Shown here in pieces: positions 52,481 to 64,000 of a stretch of DNA of 64,000 nucleotides. The stretch comes from Methylococcus capsulatus. Lineage in GTDB: Bacteria > Pseudomonadota > Gammaproteobacteria > Methylococcales > Methylococcaceae. The DNA is taken from positions 2,731,513 through 2,795,512 of the forward strand of contig NZ_CP104311.1 in NCBI RefSeq assembly GCF_036864975.1, read 5' to 3'. Both the position numbers and the translations under genes were made by a program. Within the stretch, counting starts at the first letter, position 1. Each line of letters opens with the position of its first letter. The notes beneath the pieces are model-generated. The model ran no database searches, was not told where the DNA came from, and worked only from the letters and a program-made list of their open reading frames with translations.

Positions 52481-54601
52481 ATGAACGCTTCCGCCTCCGA
52501 AATTCCGCAGAACTCGCCGCAATCCGCCGGCACGCTGATGCCGCTGGTGAGTTTTCAGCGGCACCGCCGGATCGCGCTGATCGTCATGGCCGTGGTCGTC
52601 GTCCTCGGAGCCGGATTCGCCTGGGTCAAAGGCAAGGCCGTCTATTCGGCCACCGCGGTGCTGTACGTAGCGCCGCGCTTCGTGAACATCCTCAAAGATT
52701 CCAAGGAGCTGGACATCCCTGCCTATGATCAATTCATCGAACATCAGGCCCGGACGGTACCGCGTTACGACATCCTGCTGGAGTCGCTGGCCAAGCTCGG
52801 CGACAAACGCTACGTCTGGCAGAGGGAAAAGGAGTCGGACCGGCGGGCTGCGGAGCGCCTGCAAGCGGCGCTCGAGGTCAAGCCGGTCAAGGACAGCTAC
52901 CTCATCACGGTCACGCTAGAATCGACCACACCGGACCATCTCGACGAACTGGTCAACACTATCGTCGATACCTATCTCGAAAAATCCCGCGAATCGGACT
53001 CCTTTTTCGCCCGCAACGTACGCCTGGCCAGCCTGCGGGAGCGGCGGGGGCAGATCCAAGATGAAATCAACACAAAGCTTGCCCGCCGTACAGAGATCGC
53101 CCAGGAGCTGAGCGTCACGACGTTCAGCGAACAGCTGGCAAGCCCCTATGACAAACTGCTGATCGAAAGCCAAAACGCGCTGGCCGCGGCCCAGCGCAAC
53201 CGGCTGGCGAGCGAGGCCGCTCTGGCGCTGTTCGAAGACAGGAACAGCGGCCAGGACGCCATCGCCGCGGCAGCCTTCGACGCCATCCAGAAAGATCCCG
53301 GCCTGATCAGCCTGAAAGGCAGCCTCTACAAGCGCCGCAGCGAATTGCTGCAGCAGGCCAGCGGCCTCGATCCCAGGCACCCTCTGAAAATCCAGATCGA
53401 CCGTGAATTCAAGGAAATCGACGAGGAGCTCAACCGAACCGTCGACAAGCTCAATGAGCAGGTCGCGAAGAGCTTCATCGATCAGCGCAGATCCGATGTG
53501 AAACGGGACCGCCAGATCGAACAGGAACTCTCCCGCCAGCTCGAATCCTTCCGCCAGAAAGCCTCCTGGTTCGCAAGACTTTACAATGAAGCCCTGAGCC
53601 TCAACGACGAAATCGAACGCAGCCGTAAGCAGCTCGACATGATCGACGAGCGTATCGAATTCTTCGAGCTCGAGTCGCGGGCTCCCGGTTTCGTTCGTGT
53701 CGAAACCTATGCCCGTCCGCCGGAGCTTCCGGTCAAGGGCGGCCGGAAGAAACTGTTCGCCGTAGTCCTCGTCGTGGCATTGATGTTGGGGGGCGCCACG
53801 CCAATCGGGCTCGACATGTTGGATCAGCGCATTCGGACCACAGGCCAGGTCGCCAAGATCATCGGCCACCGGCCAGTCGCCTGGTTCGTCGAACATCACG
53901 GTAGCCCCGATCTCAAACGGATGAGCACAGATCAGCTGCGCCGGCTGGCCATTGCTGTAAACCGGGAGCGGGAGGTACACGGCAATCGGCTGGTATTGCT
54001 GACCTCTGTCAAACCGGATGCCGGGGTGACCAGTCTCGCCCTGGACCTAGCCTCCGAATTGGCCGTGCTCGGTGTACGCACCGTGGTCGTAGAAGCCGAT
54101 GCCATCAAACCCGACCCCCGCTACCGGGCCGAGCCGGCCCAACCGGGGCTGGCCGACCTGTTGGCCGGTTCCGGCGAAGTTCCAACGGCGGTCGTGGCAG
54201 CGGCAGACGGATTGCCGGATCGGCTGGGAATGGGGACCGCCCCGGGGCGGCAGTTGTTCGCCTATCCCACATTGCGCCGGTGTTTCGACGAGTTGAAAGC
54301 GGCCTATGATCTGGTGCTGGTCGATGCGCCGCCCCTGCTGTTGTCCGCCGATACTGAGTACCTGGTGGAGGTCGCGGACGTCACCCTGCTGCTGGTAGGC
54401 GCCGGCCAGGTCAAGCCGGGCGAACTGCGGCGGGCGGCCGGCATCCTGCAGAAGATCGACCCTAGCGCGGTGGGTTTCGTGGTCACCCGACTGGAGGTCT
54501 ATCGGGGCGGCGGTTATTACGCCAAACTGGCCGAGGAGTTCGCCCTGGCCATCGGCAACGAAAACAGGAAGAAACACGCATCGAGGAGGCTGGAGGAATG
54601 A
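52481..54601 (+). CDS. Polysaccharide copolymerase with tyrosine-kinase-like domain, P-loop degenerate
   Basis: The 706-residue protein has the Wzc/GumC layout: TM1 at about 31-50, a Wzz-type periplasmic domain with long coiled coils (about 180-400), TM2 at about 425-445, and a cytoplasmic bacterial tyrosine-kinase-like domain (about 480-690). Walker B is intact (LVLVDAPPLL), but Walker A reads PDAGVTSLAL, with Val516 replacing the invariant Lys, and Walker A' is VVVEADAIKPD. The C-terminus has only a small tyrosine group (YRGGGYY) rather than a long Tyr cluster. It probably controls chain length and links to the Wza-like channel, but kinase activity is doubtful. Confidence 0.85.
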   Translation: MNASASEIPQNSPQSAGTLMPLVSFQRHRRIALIVMAVVVVLGAGFAWVKGKAVYSATAVLYVAPRFVNILKDSKELDIPAYDQFIEHQARTVPRYDILLESLAKLGDKRYVWQREKESDRRAAERLQAALEVKPVKDSYLITVTLESTTPDHLDELVNTIVDTYLEKSRESDSFFARNVRLASLRERRGQIQDEINTKLARRTEIAQELSVTTFSEQLASPYDKLLIESQNALAAAQRNRLASEAALALFEDRNSGQDAIAAAAFDAIQKDPGLISLKGSLYKRRSELLQQASGLDPRHPLKIQIDREFKEIDEELNRTVDKLNEQVAKSFIDQRRSDVKRDRQIEQELSRQLESFRQKASWFARLYNEALSLNDEIERSRKQLDMIDERIEFFELESRAPGFVRVETYARPPELPVKGGRKKLFAVVLVVALMLGGATPIGLDMLDQRIRTTGQVAKIIGHRPVAWFVEHHGSPDLKRMSTDQLRRLAIAVNREREVHGNRLVLLTSVKPDAGVTSLALDLASELAVLGVRTVVVEADAIKPDPRYRAEPAQPGLADLLAGSGEVPTAVVAAADGLPDRLGMGTAPGRQLFAYPTLRRCFDELKAAYDLVLVDAPPLLLSADTEYLVEVADVTLLLVGAGQVKPGELRRAAGILQKIDPSAVGFVVTRLEVYRGGGYYAKLAEEFALAIGNENRKKHASRRLEE

Positions 54602-56669: not shown

Positions 56670-57260
56670 ATGTCCAGAATCACCAAACGTCTCCTGTTGA
56701 GTTTATTGACGCCGGCCGCGGCCATCGCCAACCGCTTGGATTCCTGGCATCGCCTGTGGGCGCATGCACGGCTCAAGGCGGCCCTCGATTCGGACCTGGA
56801 CCCTTCCGTGGTGGTACTGGAGACACCCGAACTGCACGGCAGCAGAAACATCCATCTGGGGCGGGACTTGTTCCTTTATCCAGGTCTGTACCTGGAAACC
56901 CAGGAACTAGGCCGCATCGAAATCGGCGACGGCGTGGTGCTGTCGCGCGGGGTGCATATCGTGTCCTATGCCTCGGTTGTCCTGGAAGACGGTGTGATGG
57001 TGGGTGAATACACCAGCATCCGGGATGCCCATCACCGTGTCGCCGAAGGCCGCTCCGTACGGGATACCGGTCATGATGCCAGGCCGGTGCGGATCGGGCG
57101 CAATGCATGGATCGGGCGGGGCGCCGCCATCCTGCGGGGAGTCACAGTCGGAGACGGCGCCGTGGTCGGCGCCAACGCGGTCGTGACGCACGACGTCCCC
57201 GCCGGCGCGGTCGTGGCCGGGGTGCCCGCCCGGCCCATCGAGCGCCCACGCCCCGCCTGA
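56670..57260 (+). CDS. Hexapeptide-repeat acyltransferase
   Basis: The 196-residue protein has an N-terminal helical stretch and a left-handed beta-helix region with repeats such as IGDGVVLSRGVHIVSYA, VMVGEYTSIRDAHH and IGRNAWIGRGAAILRGVTVG, ending in VAGVPARPIE, the usual LbH acetyltransferase signature (compare WcaF/NodL-type). It probably O-acetylates a sugar of the repeat unit. The His in DAHH is a plausible catalytic residue. It is followed immediately by the Wzy-like gene (TGATG overlap). Confidence 0.87.
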   Translation: MSRITKRLLLSLLTPAAAIANRLDSWHRLWAHARLKAALDSDLDPSVVVLETPELHGSRNIHLGRDLFLYPGLYLETQELGRIEIGDGVVLSRGVHIVSYASVVLEDGVMVGEYTSIRDAHHRVAEGRSVRDTGHDARPVRIGRNAWIGRGAAILRGVTVGDGAVVGANAVVTHDVPAGAVVAGVPARPIERPRPA

Positions 57261-58639
57261 TGCTCTCCTACATCGCGCTGCTGCCCGGCATCGCGGCCTT
57301 TCTGATCGCTACCCGGCACGACACCCAATACGCCTTTCTCCGTGTCTATTTGCCGGTGTTACTGCTTCTGCCGGATTATTACCGCTGCATTTTCCCGGGT
57401 CTGCCGGACCCGACCTTCAATCAGGCGGCCTGCGTGGCGGTCGCGGCAAGCTTCGCCATGAAGGGCTTCCCCGGTTACCGGTTCAGCCTCAACGACGTGT
57501 GGGTGTTCGGCTATGCGCTGTGCGTATCGATTTCCGAGTACCGCGCTTCCGGGTATTCCGACGCCCAGAATTTGATGTTCGCGATGCTGTTCAGCGGCGT
57601 CGTTCCCTACCTGCTGGCGAAAAGTCTGATCGAGCCGTTCGGCAACCGTTTCCTGTTTGCCAAGATTTGTGTGCTTGCCATAGCAGTGGTATCGATCTTC
57701 AATCTGGTCGAGACGCGCCTGGGGTTGAATCCGTGGCGCTTCGTGTTCGACCGGTTCTTTCCGGGTCAGGGGATGGAATGGGTCACGACTTTCCGCTTTG
57801 GGCTGGCGCGGGCTGCCGGTCCTTACGCCCACGCCCTGCTGGCCGGGATCATGATGATCGTCGCCTTCCGTTTGCAGCGTTGGCTGCAATGGTCCGGCGC
57901 CTGGCCGGACAAGTTCAGGCAGCTGCCCTGGCTGCCCTACAAACCGGCGTTCTGGCTGACACTGATCACAGCGGGCGGCCTGTTCATCACTCTGGCAAAG
58001 GGTTCCTGGCTGGCCAGTTTCATCGGCGCCAGTCTTACCGCCGTGGGGCGTAGCAAACACCGCAATCTGGCGATGGCGGTGATTCTGGGCGGGATGGTCG
58101 TGATCGGCGTTCCGGCAATCATCGCCTTCCTGAACTACGCTTCGGTCGGCCGCGAAAACGCCAAAGATGAAAATCAGGAAACGGCGGCTTATCGCTATGA
58201 ACTGATCGAAAACTACCTGGACATTGCCAATCAAGAGCCGCTTTGGGGCTGGGGCCTGACCAAATGGCCGAAAGTGCCGGGGGCGGAGTCCATCGACAAT
58301 CATTTCCTGCTGCTGTTGCTGATGCATGGCTACTTGGCCTCGGTGTTTTTTCTACTGTTGCTGCCCGGCACCATGATCCGGCTTTTGATCTATGGGCTGC
58401 GCCAGCCGCCCACCGGCCCACCCGGCAGTTCGCTGGCCTTCACGCTCGCCGGCATCTATCTCGCTTATTTCGTCGCCATTGCCACAGTGTTCATGGGGCA
58501 ACAGACGATGCCCATGTTTTTCATGCTCACCGGCTGGGCGGAGAGCTACATGCAGCGGCGGAGCCCAGAATGGGGTTGGATGGGCGCAGGCCGGCGGTTC
58601 GAGGCGGCAGTGCCGTTCCGGTTCAGGAGGGTCTTATGA
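57260..58639 (+). CDS. O-antigen ligase/polymerase-like membrane protein (Wzy/WaaL-like)
   Basis: The roughly 459-residue protein has about 10-12 transmembrane helices and a periplasmic loop with YRYELIENYLDIANQEPLWGWG, the region where Wzy/WaaL (O-antigen ligase domain) proteins have their functional motif. ATG 57260 overlaps the preceding stop. In this locus it is the best candidate for the polymerase that joins repeat units after flipping. WaaL and Wzy cannot be separated by sequence alone; context favours Wzy. Confidence 0.82.
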   Translation: MLSYIALLPGIAAFLIATRHDTQYAFLRVYLPVLLLLPDYYRCIFPGLPDPTFNQAACVAVAASFAMKGFPGYRFSLNDVWVFGYALCVSISEYRASGYSDAQNLMFAMLFSGVVPYLLAKSLIEPFGNRFLFAKICVLAIAVVSIFNLVETRLGLNPWRFVFDRFFPGQGMEWVTTFRFGLARAAGPYAHALLAGIMMIVAFRLQRWLQWSGAWPDKFRQLPWLPYKPAFWLTLITAGGLFITLAKGSWLASFIGASLTAVGRSKHRNLAMAVILGGMVVIGVPAIIAFLNYASVGRENAKDENQETAAYRYELIENYLDIANQEPLWGWGLTKWPKVPGAESIDNHFLLLLLMHGYLASVFFLLLLPGTMIRLLIYGLRQPPTGPPGSSLAFTLAGIYLAYFVAIATVFMGQQTMPMFFMLTGWAESYMQRRSPEWGWMGAGRRFEAAVPFRFRRVL

Positions 58640-58758
58640 CGCGCCGGCCCGTTTTGGGTCTGGCTAAGGATCATGGCGACAGGCCGCCCTTGGACAATGC
58701 CTCCTCGGCAATAACGCAGTGAGCGCAATAGCGGGAGGTATCGCGTGAGCGCAACTGC

Positions 58759-61620
58759 TCACCATGATCGTTCCCCCTCCTCCTCGGCTCTTCGCCCGGA
58801 AGGAGAAGGAGGCCAAGATGCTGCGACTTTCACGTTAATCAGCAGATTGCAGAGAAAGCCGATCAGCAGCAGGCCTGACGCCATCCACAGCAGGGCGAAC
58901 CGGGCATGGGCCTCGGCGAGGCCGAGTCCGATCAGCCAGGTTTCCAGCGAGGAGATCAGCGGCGGCACGGCTGCCGCCGCAACCGCCCAAGCCATCAGTA
59001 GTCTGCCATGGACCCTCCCGAGCCGGAGGGTTCCGAATACATCCGCCGCATAGGCAGGCAAGGCGGCGATCCCGCCACCGAAAAGGCTCGCCGCGGCGGC
59101 GCAGCAGGCCATGAAAGCAGGCACGTTGCCGCTCAGGCCTATGAAAGGCAGCGCCATACAGAGCGCCGCACCGCCCAGGAACACCAGCGTATAGACGGAC
59201 TTGCGGCCGACCCGGTCGGACACCCAGCCCCACAGCAGGCGACCACCGAAGTCGGCCAGAGCCAGCATTCCGACAAACACCGCCGTGCCGGCGGCGCTGG
59301 GCATGCCGCGCAGTATTGGCACTGCCAGGCTCGAAAGGCCGATACCGGCGGCGGCACTCAGAAAGAGCATGAGCCAAAGCAGATAAAACCGCGGCGACCG
59401 CCATTCCCGCACCGGGGCCAGTTTGCCATCCGACGGCGACAGCCGTAGGGCAAAGCCGGCGAGCAGCAAAACCAAACCCAGCGATCCGAGCGCAAACGCC
59501 GTTTCCACCATGCCCAAGGGTTCGGGATTTCCGCTGAGTTTCGAGAGCGCCTCCGCCAGCGGACCGACCAACAGAATGCCACCGCCGAAGCCTGCGAGCG
59601 TCAGTCCGGCCATCGTTCCACGACGGGCAGGAATGACTTGCATCAAGGCGGGCATCGTGGCCGCATAACCGAAACCCAAGCCAAGGCCGCCTACCATGCC
59701 GTAACCGGACAAAACCAGGTTCTTCACCTGGAGATGCGCGCCAAACAGAACTGAGAGCAGACCGGCCAACAAGAGCAGGGAGGCGGCGAAAAGCGCTGGA
59801 CGAGGTCCGACCCGGTCCGCCCAGCGGCCACCGAAGTCCGCCGCCAATCCCACGCCAAGCACGGCCAAACCGAACATCCACGCCTGAGTCGGCATGAGAT
59901 CGGGTGCAAAGAGACTGGCCAGGAGTCCGCCGGGCAGGGCAAGTGAATATAATAGGCCAAGGCCGATGAATACACCGAATGCGGCGACCGAGACCGGCCA
60001 GCGGCTGAAACCACTCCGGGTCGCGGGACGGGGAGAATCGCTTTCGCGCCGCTCGGTCCGCAGCTTCAGGCCTAGTCTGGCCAGAACGGCGTACACAACC
60101 TGCCGTTCGTCGGGCCGGAACAGAAGGACGAATACGAGACCGGCGGTGACGGCGACATAGGCCAGGCCGAACAAGATCAGTATGCCGAGCGCATCCCACC
60201 GCGTGAGCTCGGCGAGCCCGGTCCAGCCGGACACGGCCCGGCTGGCCAGATAGCCGACCAGATAGGGCAGGGCTCCGATGGGGGCGACCTCCCGAAAAAA
60301 CCGTAACTGACCAATGCCCAATTGCGCATTGGCATAAACGATGACGCCCAGGCTGCTGCCGATCCGGGTCAGCATGATCATCGCTGCCAGGGTGAGCAAA
60401 CTGGTTTCACCCCGCAACTTCATCCAGACCAACCCCACCGCCAACAGGACGATCTGCGGCACGATGAAAGCCCAGAAAGTGCGGGCGGGCGAGTTGATCG
60501 CCTGGAAATAACTGGTGACCGGGGCCGTCAGTGCATGGATATGAAAGCCGACCGCGGCATAGAGCAGCAGGGTTCCGGCATCGGCGACCGGGACGCTCTG
60601 TCCCATCCAGGCCGTGATCAGCACCGTCGCGAACGGCGCCATGAATCCCAGCGCCAACCCGTTGAGCGCATTCAGGTAGCGCGAGGAGCGCAGATACAGC
60701 CGTACCAGTTCCTCACGCTCCCCGAGCGTGTGCAAGTGGGTGATCGCGGACAGCAGGCTATTAGTCGCCGAATTGAAAAGCTGGCTGGCCATCGTCGGGA
60801 ATTTTTGACTGATGTCCAGCAGGCCGAGGGCGCCGGGATTGTGGGTGATGTAGCCGGCCAGTGCCCGTTCGCTGGTATTCAAGAATACACTGAGCAGGCC
60901 GTTCACCTGCATGACGCCGCCGTACTCCAGGAACGGCCGCCACTGGGCCTTTCCCAGCCCCCACAGATGGATGCGGAATCCGGGCAACAGCCGGTGAAAC
61001 CAGGCTAGGGTGAACGTCAGCGCGAACACCGCGCGCAACACATAGGCCGCCATCATCCCGACCAGTCCCCAGCCCTGGAGCAGGAAGACGACTATCAGCA
61101 CGGCCTCCAGGGTCGAGCAGACCAGCGAGATCACCGCGTTTTCCGCATTGCGGTGGATGCCACCCATGACGTAACCGTATGGAACCAGCAGTTCCAGCAG
61201 CATCGCTCCCACCACGCCCAGCACCAGAAGCCGCATCGTTTCCTGCATCGCCGGTTCGACATGGAACCAGGCGTAGAGCCAGGGCATCGAGACCCACAAT
61301 GTACCCAGGATGAAGCTCCCGAGCGCCAGGGTGAGCCAGATGCCGGCTCCCATCATGCGGCCTATGTCGTCGAGCCGGCCGTGGGCGTAGTATTCCGCCG
61401 AATAACGTATGTACACCCCGGCGATGCCGAAGGTGCTCATGCCGATGTAGCCCAACACCAGGAAGCAGGTGGCCCAGATGCTGTAGTCCTGCAGCGATAC
61501 GTGCAGCAGGATGAACGGCGGCAGGCCGACGCGGATAATGAGGTAGATCATTTGCCCGACGACGCTGGCGATGGCATTCCTGGACAGGCGGGTATGGGCA
61601 TTGCGGTGGTCGTCGGCCAT
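58759..61620 (-). CDS. Wzx-type flippase fused to an MFS (oxalate/formate antiporter-like) transporter
   Basis: This 953-residue protein is a single uninterrupted frame. Residues about 10-510 form a polysaccharide flippase of the MOP superfamily (about 14 helices, beginning RNAIASVVGQMIYLIIRVG). A polar linker of about 20 residues (RTERRESDSPRPATRS) follows near residue 525. Residues about 540-930 form a 12-helix MFS transporter of oxalate/formate antiporter type, with two loop motifs GGRWADRVGPRP and GWVSDRVGRKSVY. A GGAG sequence lies ten bases before the ATG. It is convergent with the Wzy-like gene and would be the flippase of this locus. Fusion of these two transporter families is not one I know. 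Confidence 0.85.
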   Translation of the reverse strand: MADDHRNAHTRLSRNAIASVVGQMIYLIIRVGLPPFILLHVSLQDYSIWATCFLVLGYIGMSTFGIAGVYIRYSAEYYAHGRLDDIGRMMGAGIWLTLALGSFILGTLWVSMPWLYAWFHVEPAMQETMRLLVLGVVGAMLLELLVPYGYVMGGIHRNAENAVISLVCSTLEAVLIVVFLLQGWGLVGMMAAYVLRAVFALTFTLAWFHRLLPGFRIHLWGLGKAQWRPFLEYGGVMQVNGLLSVFLNTSERALAGYITHNPGALGLLDISQKFPTMASQLFNSATNSLLSAITHLHTLGEREELVRLYLRSSRYLNALNGLALGFMAPFATVLITAWMGQSVPVADAGTLLLYAAVGFHIHALTAPVTSYFQAINSPARTFWAFIVPQIVLLAVGLVWMKLRGETSLLTLAAMIMLTRIGSSLGVIVYANAQLGIGQLRFFREVAPIGALPYLVGYLASRAVSGWTGLAELTRWDALGILILFGLAYVAVTAGLVFVLLFRPDERQVVYAVLARLGLKLRTERRESDSPRPATRSGFSRWPVSVAAFGVFIGLGLLYSLALPGGLLASLFAPDLMPTQAWMFGLAVLGVGLAADFGGRWADRVGPRPALFAASLLLLAGLLSVLFGAHLQVKNLVLSGYGMVGGLGLGFGYAATMPALMQVIPARRGTMAGLTLAGFGGGILLVGPLAEALSKLSGNPEPLGMVETAFALGSLGLVLLLAGFALRLSPSDGKLAPVREWRSPRFYLLWLMLFLSAAAGIGLSSLAVPILRGMPSAAGTAVFVGMLALADFGGRLLWGWVSDRVGRKSVYTLVFLGGAALCMALPFIGLSGNVPAFMACCAAAASLFGGGIAALPAYAADVFGTLRLGRVHGRLLMAWAVAAAAVPPLISSLETWLIGLGLAEAHARFALLWMASGLLLIGFLCNLLINVKVAASWPPSPSGRRAEEEGERSW

Positions 61621-61749
61621 GGACTGCTGCTCCGGTGAGGCGAAGGGGGCGTTATTTTGCCATGCGCACAGCTATCCGGCTGCAGCAACCTGCGAATCGA
61701 CGAGGGCTGCGGTATGATGGGTGGCATCGAGCGCAAAGGAGGGGGAATC

Positions 61750-62478
61750 GTGCGTCTGATGGATTATTTCGATCGCTGCTATATCATCAATCTGCCCGAA
61801 CGCAGGGATCGCCGGCGTGAGATGGAAAAGGAACTGGAACGGGTTGGCCTGTCGCCGATGCCCGGCCGGGTGGAGTTCTTCCCGGCCATCCGGCCCGAAT
61901 CCGCCGGGCCGTTCCCCAGTATCGGCGCACACGGCTGCTTCATGAGCCATTTGAGCATCTTGCGCGCAGCCAAGGCTCAGGGCCTCCGCAATGTCCTGAT
62001 ACTCGAGGATGACCTCACCCTCTCCGCGCAGTTTCCCGAAGTCGAAGAGAGGCTGCTCGGCGAATTGCGGGAAATCCCCTGGGATCTCACGTTCTTCGGC
62101 CATGTATTGGAGTTTTCCGAAGTCCCGTCAGACAAGGTGCACCTGGAGCCCTACGCAGGCCCCATCGTCACGGCGCACTTCTATGCGGTCAACGGTCCCG
62201 TGATCGACCGCCTGCTGGCGTTTCTCGATACTCTGTTGCAGCGTCCGCCGGGCCATCCGGAAGGGGGCCCCATGCACGTGGATGGAGCGTACTCGACATT
62301 CCGGCAGCAGAATCCCGATGTCGTCACCCTGGTGGCGGTGCCCAGCCTGGGATGGCAGCGCAGCTCGCGCAGCGATATCGCTCCCAATCGGTGGTACGAT
62401 CGCTGGCCTCTGATGCGGAATCTGGTCGCCCTGGCACGCCGTGGCAAGGTATGGTTACGTGGCAACCGCCGGCTTTGA
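61750..62478 (+). CDS. Glycosyltransferase family 25 (LPS-type)
   Basis: The 242-residue protein begins DYFDRCYIINLPERRDRR, typical of GT25, and has the donor-site motif VLILEDDLTL near residue 86. GT25 enzymes add galactose or glucose to lipooligosaccharide; here it may modify the exopolysaccharide or LPS. GTG 61750 is seven bases after AAGGAGG and is chosen over ATG 61759. TATGAT (61713-61718) is a candidate -10. The gene overlaps the following frame by 20 bases. Confidence 0.85.
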   Translation: MRLMDYFDRCYIINLPERRDRRREMEKELERVGLSPMPGRVEFFPAIRPESAGPFPSIGAHGCFMSHLSILRAAKAQGLRNVLILEDDLTLSAQFPEVEERLLGELREIPWDLTFFGHVLEFSEVPSDKVHLEPYAGPIVTAHFYAVNGPVIDRLLAFLDTLLQRPPGHPEGGPMHVDGAYSTFRQQNPDVVTLVAVPSLGWQRSSRSDIAPNRWYDRWPLMRNLVALARRGKVWLRGNRRL

Positions 62479-64000
62479 AACTTCGGCGGGCGGGAGACGG
62501 GATGGGCGGCCGCCGGAATGCTGGCTTATCGTCGCAGTGCTTTGCCTTGGCTTTACAGCCTGCGGTGAAACGGACGCTCCAGCTGCTCCGTCAGCCTCCA
62601 GCTCCGGTATCGGTGTGAACATCGCCGGTCTAGCCTATTACGGCACTGAAATTCCTTTTGTCGATCTGTTCAAACTCTCAGGACCCTGGCTCACCCAATG
62701 TCGGCCCGGGCGCGATCCAGGCTGCGACGAACAACGCTGGCCTCCCGGCGCGAGCGCTTGGAACACTTTCGAACAGGATGCGCTGGTACTGGACGCAGCG
62801 GGGTATCCGAATTCGCTGCCGGATCCGCCCCGAAACGGCGCGTCCGGCAGTCGTTTCACCTCCGTCGCCACTCTGGTACCGACTGGCCTGAGTCCTTCCC
62901 GACCGGCCGGACGCTTCATCGTTCGCTACCAAGGCCAGGGCACGCTCGGCTATGCGCGGGGCGCCGTTCGCAATGCCGCTTTATCTGGACCCGGGCGGGA
63001 TGTCGTCGACGTGAATGGTGTCGGTGGCGAATTCTGGTTCGAGCTCGCCATCCTGGCCACGGATCCCGGCGGCAACGGCGATCACATCCGCAATATCAGA
63101 GTCGTGCCCGAAGGGGGCACCTGCGAAGGACAGCCCACGGCCTTCTGCACCGATTCCATGGGCTGCGGGGAGCAGCGTGACTGCCGGCCGTTCGAGGAGT
63201 CGGACTCCATCTTCGATCCTCGATTCCTGCGCAATCTGGCGCAGTTCCGCGCCATCCGTTTCATGGCTTATCAAAACACCAACGATTCCACCGCTGTCGG
63301 CTGGACCGATCGCACCGCTCCGGAAAGCCGGACCTGGGCGTCCGAGACCGGCGACGGCGGTCCGGCCGAGATGATCCCGGCATTGGGCAACCGCCTGCAG
63401 GCGGACGTCTGGGTGAACATGCCTGCCCGCGCCGACGATGGTTACGTCCGCCAGTTCGCCATGCTGATGCGGCGGAAGCTCGACAAAGACCGTAAGGTCT
63501 ACGTCGAATACAGCAACGAAGCCTGGAACGATGCGTTCTCCGCCGGTCGCTGGATGGAAGCGCAGGCGCTGGCGAGATGGCCGGACGCGGACGAGAGCGC
63601 CTACGGCAAAAGGCTGCAATGGTACGGAATGCGTACGGCACAGATGTGCGACATTTGGAAAGAAGTCTGGGCGGAGGAAGGGGACCGGGTCGTCTGTGTC
63701 ATGGGAAGCCAGGCGGCCAATCCCTGGACTGCACGCCAGGCCCTGGACTGTCCTTTGTGGCAGGGCGGGCGCGGCGGTTCGCCGTGCTACCGGCATCATA
63801 TCCAGGCTTTGGCCATCGCCCCCTATTTCGGCCACTACCTGGGTTTGCCCGAACATGCGGCGACGGTGAAAGGCTGGTGTTCCGATCCCGACGGCGGACT
63901 GCGCCGCCTTTTCACCGAAATCTTCTACGGCGGCGAGCTTCCCGGCGGCCCGCCCGGCGGAGCCTTGGAGGAAGCCAAGCGACAGATGCAGGAAAACAAA
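62459..64000 (+). CDS. Secreted or lipid-anchored polysaccharide-active protein, partial
   Basis: The frame runs open to the right edge (514 codons seen). A GTG at 62459 with AAGG upstream would give a signal peptide (CWLIVAVLCLGFTAC) ending in a possible lipobox Cys. The mature part has an N-terminal region with cysteines (QCRPGRDPGCDE, TCEGQPTAFC, MGCGEQRDC), then a domain with VYVEYSNEAWND, a motif I associate with proteins annotated as cellulose-binding or glycoside-hydrolase-like. The start is uncertain because no ATG is available. Its position in the locus suggests it acts on the exported polymer, as a hydrolase or binding protein. Function is not established. Confidence 0.6.
   Translation, partial: MATAGFETSAGGRRDGRPPECWLIVAVLCLGFTACGETDAPAAPSASSSGIGVNIAGLAYYGTEIPFVDLFKLSGPWLTQCRPGRDPGCDEQRWPPGASAWNTFEQDALVLDAAGYPNSLPDPPRNGASGSRFTSVATLVPTGLSPSRPAGRFIVRYQGQGTLGYARGAVRNAALSGPGRDVVDVNGVGGEFWFELAILATDPGGNGDHIRNIRVVPEGGTCEGQPTAFCTDSMGCGEQRDCRPFEESDSIFDPRFLRNLAQFRAIRFMAYQNTNDSTAVGWTDRTAPESRTWASETGDGGPAEMIPALGNRLQADVWVNMPARADDGYVRQFAMLMRRKLDKDRKVYVEYSNEAWNDAFSAGRWMEAQALARWPDADESAYGKRLQWYGMRTAQMCDIWKEVWAEEGDRVVCVMGSQAANPWTARQALDCPLWQGGRGGSPCYRHHIQALAIAPYFGHYLGLPEHAATVKGWCSDPDGGLRRLFTEIFYGGELPGGPPGGALEEAKRQMQENK

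What the first reader, a model, noticed from the sequence alone, without database searches (positions are those of the whole stretch)
58759..61620. Apparent natural fusion of a Wzx-type polysaccharide flippase and an OxlT-type MFS transporter
One uninterrupted 953-codon frame joins a 14-helix MOP flippase to a 12-helix MFS domain with intact loop motifs (GRWADRVGPRP and GWVSDRVGRKSVY), linked by a short charged segment. Both halves look complete, so this is not a fragment. A single polypeptide with about 26 helices from two unrelated transporter families is unusual. It may couple lipid-linked oligosaccharide flipping to import or export of a small anion such as formate or oxalate, which would be notable in a one-carbon metabolising organism.
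Basis: partly seen in the sequence, partly recalled or inferred. Interest (0 to 1): 0.75.

Follow-up and report, generated by a model that had tools for sequence, protein, structure and literature searches.

The report
Polysaccharide flippase fused to second transporter
In a small group of methane-eating bacteria, the gene for a membrane protein that probably flips sugar building blocks has swallowed a second transporter gene, and that second half then changed so fast in most of the species examined that it may well have lost its original job.

Summary
One intact frame, 58759-61620 (-), 953 codons, joins a MOP/Wzx-like flippase to an MFS domain. The same in-frame fusion is in all 6 Methylococcus genomes held, and in no other genus among the matches listed for family, order, class and phylum samples. 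In two outside relatives a similar exopolysaccharide cluster has the flippase alone, its stop overlapping the wzy stop by 6 nt. In 5 of 6 Methylococcus the fusion ends with that same overlap, so an MFS gene was apparently inserted at the flippase's 3' end.

The MFS half is not OxlT-type. All 16 solo relatives tested and the earliest-branching fusion (MAG STC_26) pass NCBI's SfMCT (L-lactate/H+ transporter) cut-off; the window's half does not. It keeps 116 of 246 family-invariant residues (STC_26: 242). Both proton-site acids are gone and a key Asn is Asp, while substrate Arg and Tyr remain. dN/dS is 0.29-0.42 in the MFS half, 0.09-0.16 in the flippase half, 0.05-0.11 in solos. The frame stays open, so it is not dead.

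Best reading: a flippase that captured a monocarboxylate transporter, whose half later became a repurposed, probably non-transporting domain. Function is untested.

The parts
58759..61620 (-). Fusion gene, 953 aa, ATG start, TGA stop
   Evidence: orthologues
60067..61620 (-). Flippase half (residues 1-518), divergent MOP / Polysacc_synt_3-like flippase
   Evidence: 54% identical solo flippases over 1-518 in G157 and G220; three 41-43% identical relatives pass the PF13440 cut-off; no Pfam match of its own
60001..60105 (-). Junction and linker (residues 506-540), charged (residues 496-545 hold 10 K/R and 5 D/E), poorly conserved
58831..60000 (-). MFS half (residues 541-930), SfMCT-like but strongly diverged
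   Evidence: Pfam MFS_1 83 bits; NCBIfam SfMCT 168-176 bits, below the 320 cut-off
59239..59241 (-). Arg794, equivalent of SfMCT R280 / OxlT R272, kept in all 6 fusions
59665..59667 (-). Tyr652, equivalent of SfMCT Y119 / OxlT Y124, kept in all 6 fusions
59251..59253 (-). Asp790, equivalent of SfMCT N276 / OxlT N268; Asn in 16 of 16 solos and in STC_26, Asp in 5 of 5 other fusions
58759..58830 (-). C-terminal end (residues 931-953 and stop); about 15 residues longer than in relatives, read from extra DNA between the fusion and wzy that is inferred to be an insertion
57107..58639 (+). Convergent Wzy-like polymerase / O-antigen ligase (Wzy_C, 52 bits); real start probably near 57260 by comparison with relatives
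52481..54601 (+). Wzc-like chain-length protein of the same exopolysaccharide cluster (name inferred; only an AAA_31 match below cut-off)
61657..62478 (+). Glycosyltransferase family 25, divergently oriented neighbour of the fusion

Best explanation
The gene encodes the probable flippase of a Wzx/Wzy-type exopolysaccharide cluster that has gained an MFS transporter as a C-terminal half. Borne out by sequence: all six Methylococcus genomes held carry the fusion at one site, between the flippase end and the convergent wzy gene, and show no other copy of that transporter. The most distant of the six (STC_26) has a nearly unchanged SfMCT-type half. In the other five, the window included, the half sits on a branch more than ten times as long as those of its nearest relatives, yet stays open and under weaker, real purifying selection. 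The simplest history is one insertion of a solo gene, in frame, into the last codons of the flippase gene before the genus radiated. INFERRED: the first half flips the lipid-linked repeat unit. In the STC_26 lineage the second half may still move a small monocarboxylate with a proton. In the window's lineage it no longer does, and has become a membrane domain that serves the flippase, by stabilising it, organising it with Wzy/Wzc or gating it.
For: Fusion uninterrupted in 6 of 6 Methylococcus. The fused copy is the only match to the solo transporter in each of the 6, and the STC_26 half is 83% identical to the solo of genus g2 (STC_26's genome is 87% complete). Before/after site: solo flippase and wzy stops overlap by 6 nt in G157 and G220; fusion and wzy stops overlap by 6 nt in 5 of 6 Methylococcus; four of these fusions end in the same ...AS-stop as those two solo flippases. 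NCBIfam SfMCT, cut-off 320: 16 of 16 solos 334-356, STC_26 half 348; four of the five crown halves tested 160-186, window 176. Of 246 positions invariant in the 16 solos, STC_26 keeps 242, the five others 109-122. SfMCT D257 and D378 equivalents are Glu in 16 of 16 solos and STC_26; in the five they are Gly (4) or Asp (1), and Thr (4) or Ile (1); N276 is Asp in 5 of 5. In SfMCT, D257A, D378A and N276A do not transport (PMC6573034, passages). dN/dS among the five: MFS 0.285-0.424, flippase 0.094-0.162, 10 pairs each; solo MFS 0.046-0.114 over 36 pairs in two genera, wzy 0.096-0.101 over 3 pairs. Crown stem 2.16 substitutions per site, against 0.11 and 0.13 for STC_26's half and the g2 solo. In-frame gaps only; an open frame is unlikely without constraint.
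Against: No functional data. Arg794, Tyr652 and Trp878 are kept in all 6, which would suit a transporter with changed substrate. 48 of 246 invariant positions changed to one shared new residue in all five, compatible with a new transport function. The losses are not confined to transport chemistry: Val and Ile are kept by all five at only 2 of 27 positions, while Arg is kept at 5 of 8. One clade of the six fused halves has weak support (67/19; 47/0 before a long row was dropped). The flippase half itself matches no Pfam model, its profile found no solved structure, and hhalign against three PF13440 proteins of the genome gave nothing (a poor 3-row alignment). Start-like codons at residues 582 and 587 recur in all five crown genes; they have no clear ribosome site at usual spacing and lie inside the MFS domain, but a separate product is not strictly excluded.
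Confidence: 0.5

Rival explanations
1. Passenger: the MFS half has no function in the crown species and is carried along because its loss has not happened, or because truncation harms the flippase or the overlapping wzy end.
For: About half of the family-invariant residues lost, of many residue kinds; dN/dS about 2.5 to 9 times that of solo relatives.
Against: Open in 6 of 6 genomes, with gaps among the five only in multiples of three; substitutions alone close the frame in 1991 of 2000 simulations at 0.3 hits per site; dN/dS still well below 1; 85 of 246 invariant positions kept in all five.
Confidence: 0.2
2. Bifunctional transporter: flippase and a working small-anion carrier on one chain, tethered for co-localisation as in NarK1-NarK2.
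For: STC_26's half passes the SfMCT cut-off and keeps 242 of 246 invariant residues; substrate Arg and Tyr kept in all 6; NarK1-NarK2 shows that two fused MFS carriers can both work (PMC5217062, abstract and section 10).
Against: In the window both proton-site acids are lost and the Arg-positioning Asn is Asp; OxlT Lys355 and Gln34 are absent; SfMCT score half of the cut-off.
Confidence: 0.18
3. Neofunctionalised carrier: the MFS half now moves a different substrate, for example a lipid or sugar-like compound needed by the polysaccharide pathway.
For: 48 of 246 invariant positions changed to one shared new residue in all five crown species, as after a change of function. Lipid-flipping carriers exist: LplT flips lysophospholipid (PMC11416262, abstract seen in the listing; that LplT is an MFS member is recalled).
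Against: Continuing high dN/dS inside the crown rather than renewed strong constraint; no substrate indicated.
Confidence: 0.1
4. Sequencing or assembly artefact joining two genes.
For: None found.
Against: Same junction in 6 of 6 genomes, four of them held as a single contig, with the neighbouring cluster also seen in L031 and L047.
Confidence: 0.01

Closest known systems
SfMCT-type L-lactate MFS transporter (NCBIfam NF049980; PDB 6g9x)
   Same: Best-scoring NCBIfam model for the MFS half, matched almost end to end; Arg of TM8 and Tyr of TM4 kept.
   Different: Window half scores 176 against a 320 cut-off; equivalents of both proton-site acids, Asn276, Tyr331 and Phe335 changed; fused behind a flippase.
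OxlT oxalate/formate antiporter (OFA; TIGR04259, TIGR00890; PDB 8hpj)
   Same: Related MFS protein with a solved structure, matched by sequence; Arg272 equivalent kept.
   Different: Lys355 is Trp and Gln34 is not Gln, in solos and fusions; far below both cut-offs.
MOP-superfamily polysaccharide flippases (Wzx; Pfam PF13440 Polysacc_synt_3, MatE)
   Same: Three solo relatives, 41-43% identical, pass the PF13440 cut-off (3 of 12 aligned members match it); sits in an exopolysaccharide cluster beside a Wzy-like gene.
   Different: The window half is too diverged for any Pfam match; carries a second transporter.
NarK1-NarK2 fused MFS nitrate/nitrite transporter of Paracoccus (PMC5217062, abstract and section 10)
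   Same: Two transporters on one polypeptide, joined by a linker thought to act only as a tether; [quoted passage not shown]
   Different: There both halves are MFS, both active and in one pathway; here the halves are of unrelated superfamilies and one has diverged strongly.

Membership tests
Major facilitator superfamily (Pfam PF07690) | Profile score over the curated cut-off | tested here: met
   83 bits against 33.4
SfMCT L-lactate transporter (NF049980) | Score over the curated cut-off of 320 bits | tested here: not met
   Window half 176; three other crown halves 160, 173, 186. STC_26's half (348) and 16 of 16 solos (334-356) do meet it
SfMCT L-lactate transporter (NF049980) | Substrate-binding Arg280 and Tyr119 | tested here: met
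   Arg794 and Tyr652, in 6 of 6 fusions
SfMCT L-lactate transporter (NF049980) | Asn276 and proton-site acids D257/D378 (each needed for transport, PMC6573034, passages) | tested here: not met
   Asp790, Gly772, Thr894 in the window; 16 of 16 solos and STC_26 have Asn, Glu, Glu
OxlT / OFA oxalate:formate antiporter | Lys355 and Gln34, stated as conserved in OFA (PMC10070484, passages) | tested here: not met
   Trp878 and Leu557; also absent from 16 of 16 solos
OxlT / OFA oxalate:formate antiporter | TIGR04259 or TIGR00890 cut-off | tested here: not met
   70 against 335; 110 against 375
MOP-superfamily polysaccharide flippase | Match to Polysacc_synt / MatE profiles | tested here: inconclusive
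   No match for the window half; relatives L009, L011 and L013 score 43.5, 33.8 and 31.3 against the PF13440 cut-off of 23; MatE matches stay below its cut-off
MOP-superfamily polysaccharide flippase | 14 transmembrane helices in the MOP fold (number recalled) | tested here: inconclusive
   Models had mean pLDDT 35 and 41 and were not searched; hydropathy unclear
Wzx of a Wzx/Wzy pathway | Encoded with wzy, wza/wzc and glycosyltransferases | tested here: met
   Wzy_C and glycosyltransferase neighbours by Pfam; Wza-like and Wzc-like names by similarity only
Wzx of a Wzx/Wzy pathway | Flips undecaprenyl-linked repeat units | not testable with these tools
   Needs experiment

The most novel reading that the evidence does not exclude
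In crown Methylococcus the captured MFS half has stopped being a carrier and become an integral working part of the flippase, a 'pseudo-transporter' domain that gates, energises or scaffolds lipid-linked sugar flipping. STC_26 would preserve something close to the starting state, so the change from transporter to accessory domain could be followed step by step.
Probability: 0.3. Interest if true: 0.75.

Novelty: new variant of a known kind. Interest (0 to 1): 0.45.

Why it matters
It is a well-bracketed case of one membrane transporter being absorbed into another of unrelated fold: the empty site, a nearly unchanged captured copy and diverged copies are all available. If the MFS half is a non-transporting domain, it would show that a whole carrier fold can be reused as an accessory part, and it would offer a new handle on how flippases work with polymerases. 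It also warns against naming such proteins 'OFA transporter' or reading anion transport from the fold alone.

Tried and rejected
Artefact, frameshift or stop between the halves: rejected. OxlT identity and formate/oxalate coupling: not supported, on residues and cut-offs. A second fusion in G021/G022, whose open frame is 951 codons: rejected; the extra length is open frame upstream of a solo flippase, not MFS. Fusions outside the genus: none among the matches listed (6 of 38 genomes carry it, all Methylococcus; 6 of 301, the same six; 2 of 369, both Methylococcus; 1 of 398, the window's own). A few outside matches run past the boundary without holding both halves, e.g. G177 (454-928, across two stops) and G368 (5-560, across three stops). 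None of the 8 matching plasmid records covers 80% of the query. One search's tables were cut, searches used strict limits (1e-25, 1e-40) and searches scored at most two candidates a genome, so a weak fusion could be missed. Separate start for the MFS half: start-like codons exist, none with a clear ribosome site at usual spacing by eye; not excluded.

Led nowhere: AlphaFold models (mean pLDDT 35 and 41; no fold search was made); hydropathy helix count; hhalign against three genome proteins; PDB profile search of the flippase (0 matches); PHROGs (one unnamed family); the first tree, which held one very long row (L024); that row was dropped and the tree rebuilt. Literature: searches listed no title describing a MOP-MFS fusion (0 papers held all three terms); these were looked at as listings, so this is weak evidence that it is unpublished. 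A search on lactate excretion by methanotrophs gave nothing that I used. TCDB and UniProt could not be consulted.

Full report
THE OBSERVATION. The minus-strand frame 58759-61620 runs from ATG to TGA over 953 codons without a stop. Pfam places MFS_1 at residues 563-886 (83 bits, cut-off 33.4); the first half matches no Pfam model. The window lies in a complete 3.43 Mb chromosome, and a search of it with the fusion gives only this place.

CONSERVATION. The family search covered 38 genomes. The six genomes of the window's genus (G000, G010-G014) each hold one match across both halves; none of the other 32 does. Two of these loci also came from named records: M. capsulatus Texas and MAG Methylococcus sp. 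STC_26 (taken as G010 and G014 because contig lengths agree), hence the genus name. Translations show 938-979 aa proteins with no stop between the halves; the TAA flagged by the search is the protein's own C-terminal stop. In order, class and phylum samples (301, 369 and 398 genomes) the listed matches hit the flippase half or the MFS half, not both, outside Methylococcus (lists cut or limited as told in Tried and rejected).

HOW IT AROSE. In G157 and G220, of another family of the order, a similar cluster (Wza-like, Wzc-like, acyltransferase, Wzy-like, convergent flippase, GT25-like; names by similarity to the window's genes; one extra gene and without the two glycosyltransferases between wzc and the acyltransferase) carries a solo flippase of 523 aa, 54% identical to the window over residues 1-518. 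Its stop codon overlaps the convergent wzy stop by 6 nt and it ends ...AS-stop. In G022, of the window's family, a solo flippase lies beside wzy without such overlap. In Methylococcus the MFS half sits between the flippase end and wzy, and in 5 of 6 genomes the fusion again overlaps the wzy stop by 6 nt; four of these end ...AS-stop. The MFS half starts with a remnant of the solo N-terminus: 'RPGFFSIEAIT' in STC_26 and in the g2 solo, 'RPSFFSAQAAT' in G011. So a nearly full-length solo gene was apparently inserted in frame into the flippase's last codons. A search with the g2 solo finds only the fused copy in each of the 6 genomes. In the window 119 nt separate the fusion and wzy, the protein is about 15 residues longer than in Texas, and a 43-base piece of this stretch recurs once elsewhere in the chromosome (86%); an insertion that displaced the stop is inferred.

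WHICH MFS. The best named model is SfMCT (L-lactate MFS transporter, cut-off 320). 16 of 16 solos score 334-356 and STC_26's half 348; of the five other fusions four were tested and score 160-186, the window 176. The oxalate/formate models are far below cut-off wherever shown. Residues were mapped through the alignment. OxlT's Lys355 and Gln34, described as conserved in OFA (PMC10070484, passages), are absent from 16 of 16 solos and 6 of 6 fusions. The shared Arg (R272/R280) and Tyr (Y124/Y119) are present in all 22.

WHAT HAPPENED TO IT. The 16 solos were picked by me from the best matches (five genera, unevenly: 6 and 7 from two of them). Of 246 columns invariant in them, STC_26 keeps 242 and the other five fusions 109-122 (window 116). 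Leaving one solo out, each solo keeps 246 of 246-267 columns invariant in the rest. In the five, 85 columns are kept by all, 53 by some, 48 changed to one shared new residue, 54 lost with differing residues, 6 deleted. Kept-by-all is best for Gly (34 of 45), Arg (5 of 8) and Pro (7 of 12), and is 0 of 36 for His, Lys, Gln, Ser and Met together but also only 2 of 27 for Val and Ile, so the loss is broad. SfMCT's N276, D257 and D378, whose Ala mutants do not transport (PMC6573034, passages), are Asn, Glu, Glu in all solos and STC_26; in the five they are Asp (5 of 5), Gly (4) or Asp (1), and Thr (4) or Ile (1).

SELECTION. Nei-Gojobori dN/dS among the five: flippase 0.094-0.162, MFS 0.285-0.424 (10 pairs each). 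Against STC_26 the MFS half gives 0.494-0.556. Controls: solo MFS 0.060-0.114 (15 pairs, genus g22) and 0.046-0.081 (21 pairs, g23); solo flippase 0.064-0.108 (10 pairs, g13); wzy 0.096-0.101 (3 pairs); one neighbouring glycosyltransferase 0.141 (1 pair). In 50-codon steps the ratio is 0.02-0.20 up to residue 450, 0.28 at 451-500 and 0.26-0.54 beyond, so the rise begins just before the junction. On the tree the stem of the five is 2.16 substitutions per site, against 0.11 for STC_26's half and 0.13 for the g2 solo; these and the five form a 100/100 group, but the six fused halves as one clade have only 67/19 support and the five have odd composition. The frame is nevertheless kept: gaps among the five are multiples of three, and random substitution at 0.3 hits per site leaves 9 of 2000 copies open.

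INTERPRETATION. Borne out: fusion, one conserved site, no solo form found in the genus, near-unchanged state in STC_26, fast divergence in the rest with remaining constraint. Inferred: one insertion event, flippase activity (from cluster and relatives), monocarboxylate transport in the STC_26 state, loss of that transport in the window, and a new accessory role. Against it: conserved Arg, Tyr and Trp, and the 48 shared replacements, would also suit a changed substrate; no model of usable quality was obtained. A precedent for two carriers on one chain is NarK1-NarK2, whose linker most likely serves only as a tether (PMC5217062, abstract and section 10). I recall no MOP-MFS fusion in print, and the listings show none; that is weak evidence.

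VERDICT. A real fusion of unusual architecture, conserved in every Methylococcus genome held; the OxlT and anion-coupling reading is not supported for this protein; new variant of a known kind (fused transporters), with an evolutionary twist that makes it more interesting than a plain fusion.

Noticed in passing
window 58640-58830: Stretch between and into the fusion's end and wzy that seems to be extra in the window; a 43-base part recurs once in the chromosome at 86% identity, suggesting a small dispersed repeat that extended the protein.
   Followed up: partly
window 58831-60000 and orthologues: Third-position GC is lower in the MFS half than in the flippase half in five species (0.74-0.78 against 0.83-0.87) but not in STC_26 (0.83 against 0.78).
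   Followed up: no
window 62441-64000 (+): Long frame next to the GT25 gene, with similar frames beside the cluster in L031, L043 and L047 and no Pfam match; by eye it starts like a lipoprotein.
   Followed up: no
L048 4026-5618 (-): A solo MFS relative (genus g19) has a C-terminal extension with one extra hydrophobic segment by eye, perhaps another small fusion in this transporter family.
   Followed up: no
L005 against L003 and L004: In G011 the N-terminal MFS part is much more diverged from its sisters (70% identical) than the C-terminal part (87-88%), and keeps more of the ancestral start; possible recombination.
   Followed up: no
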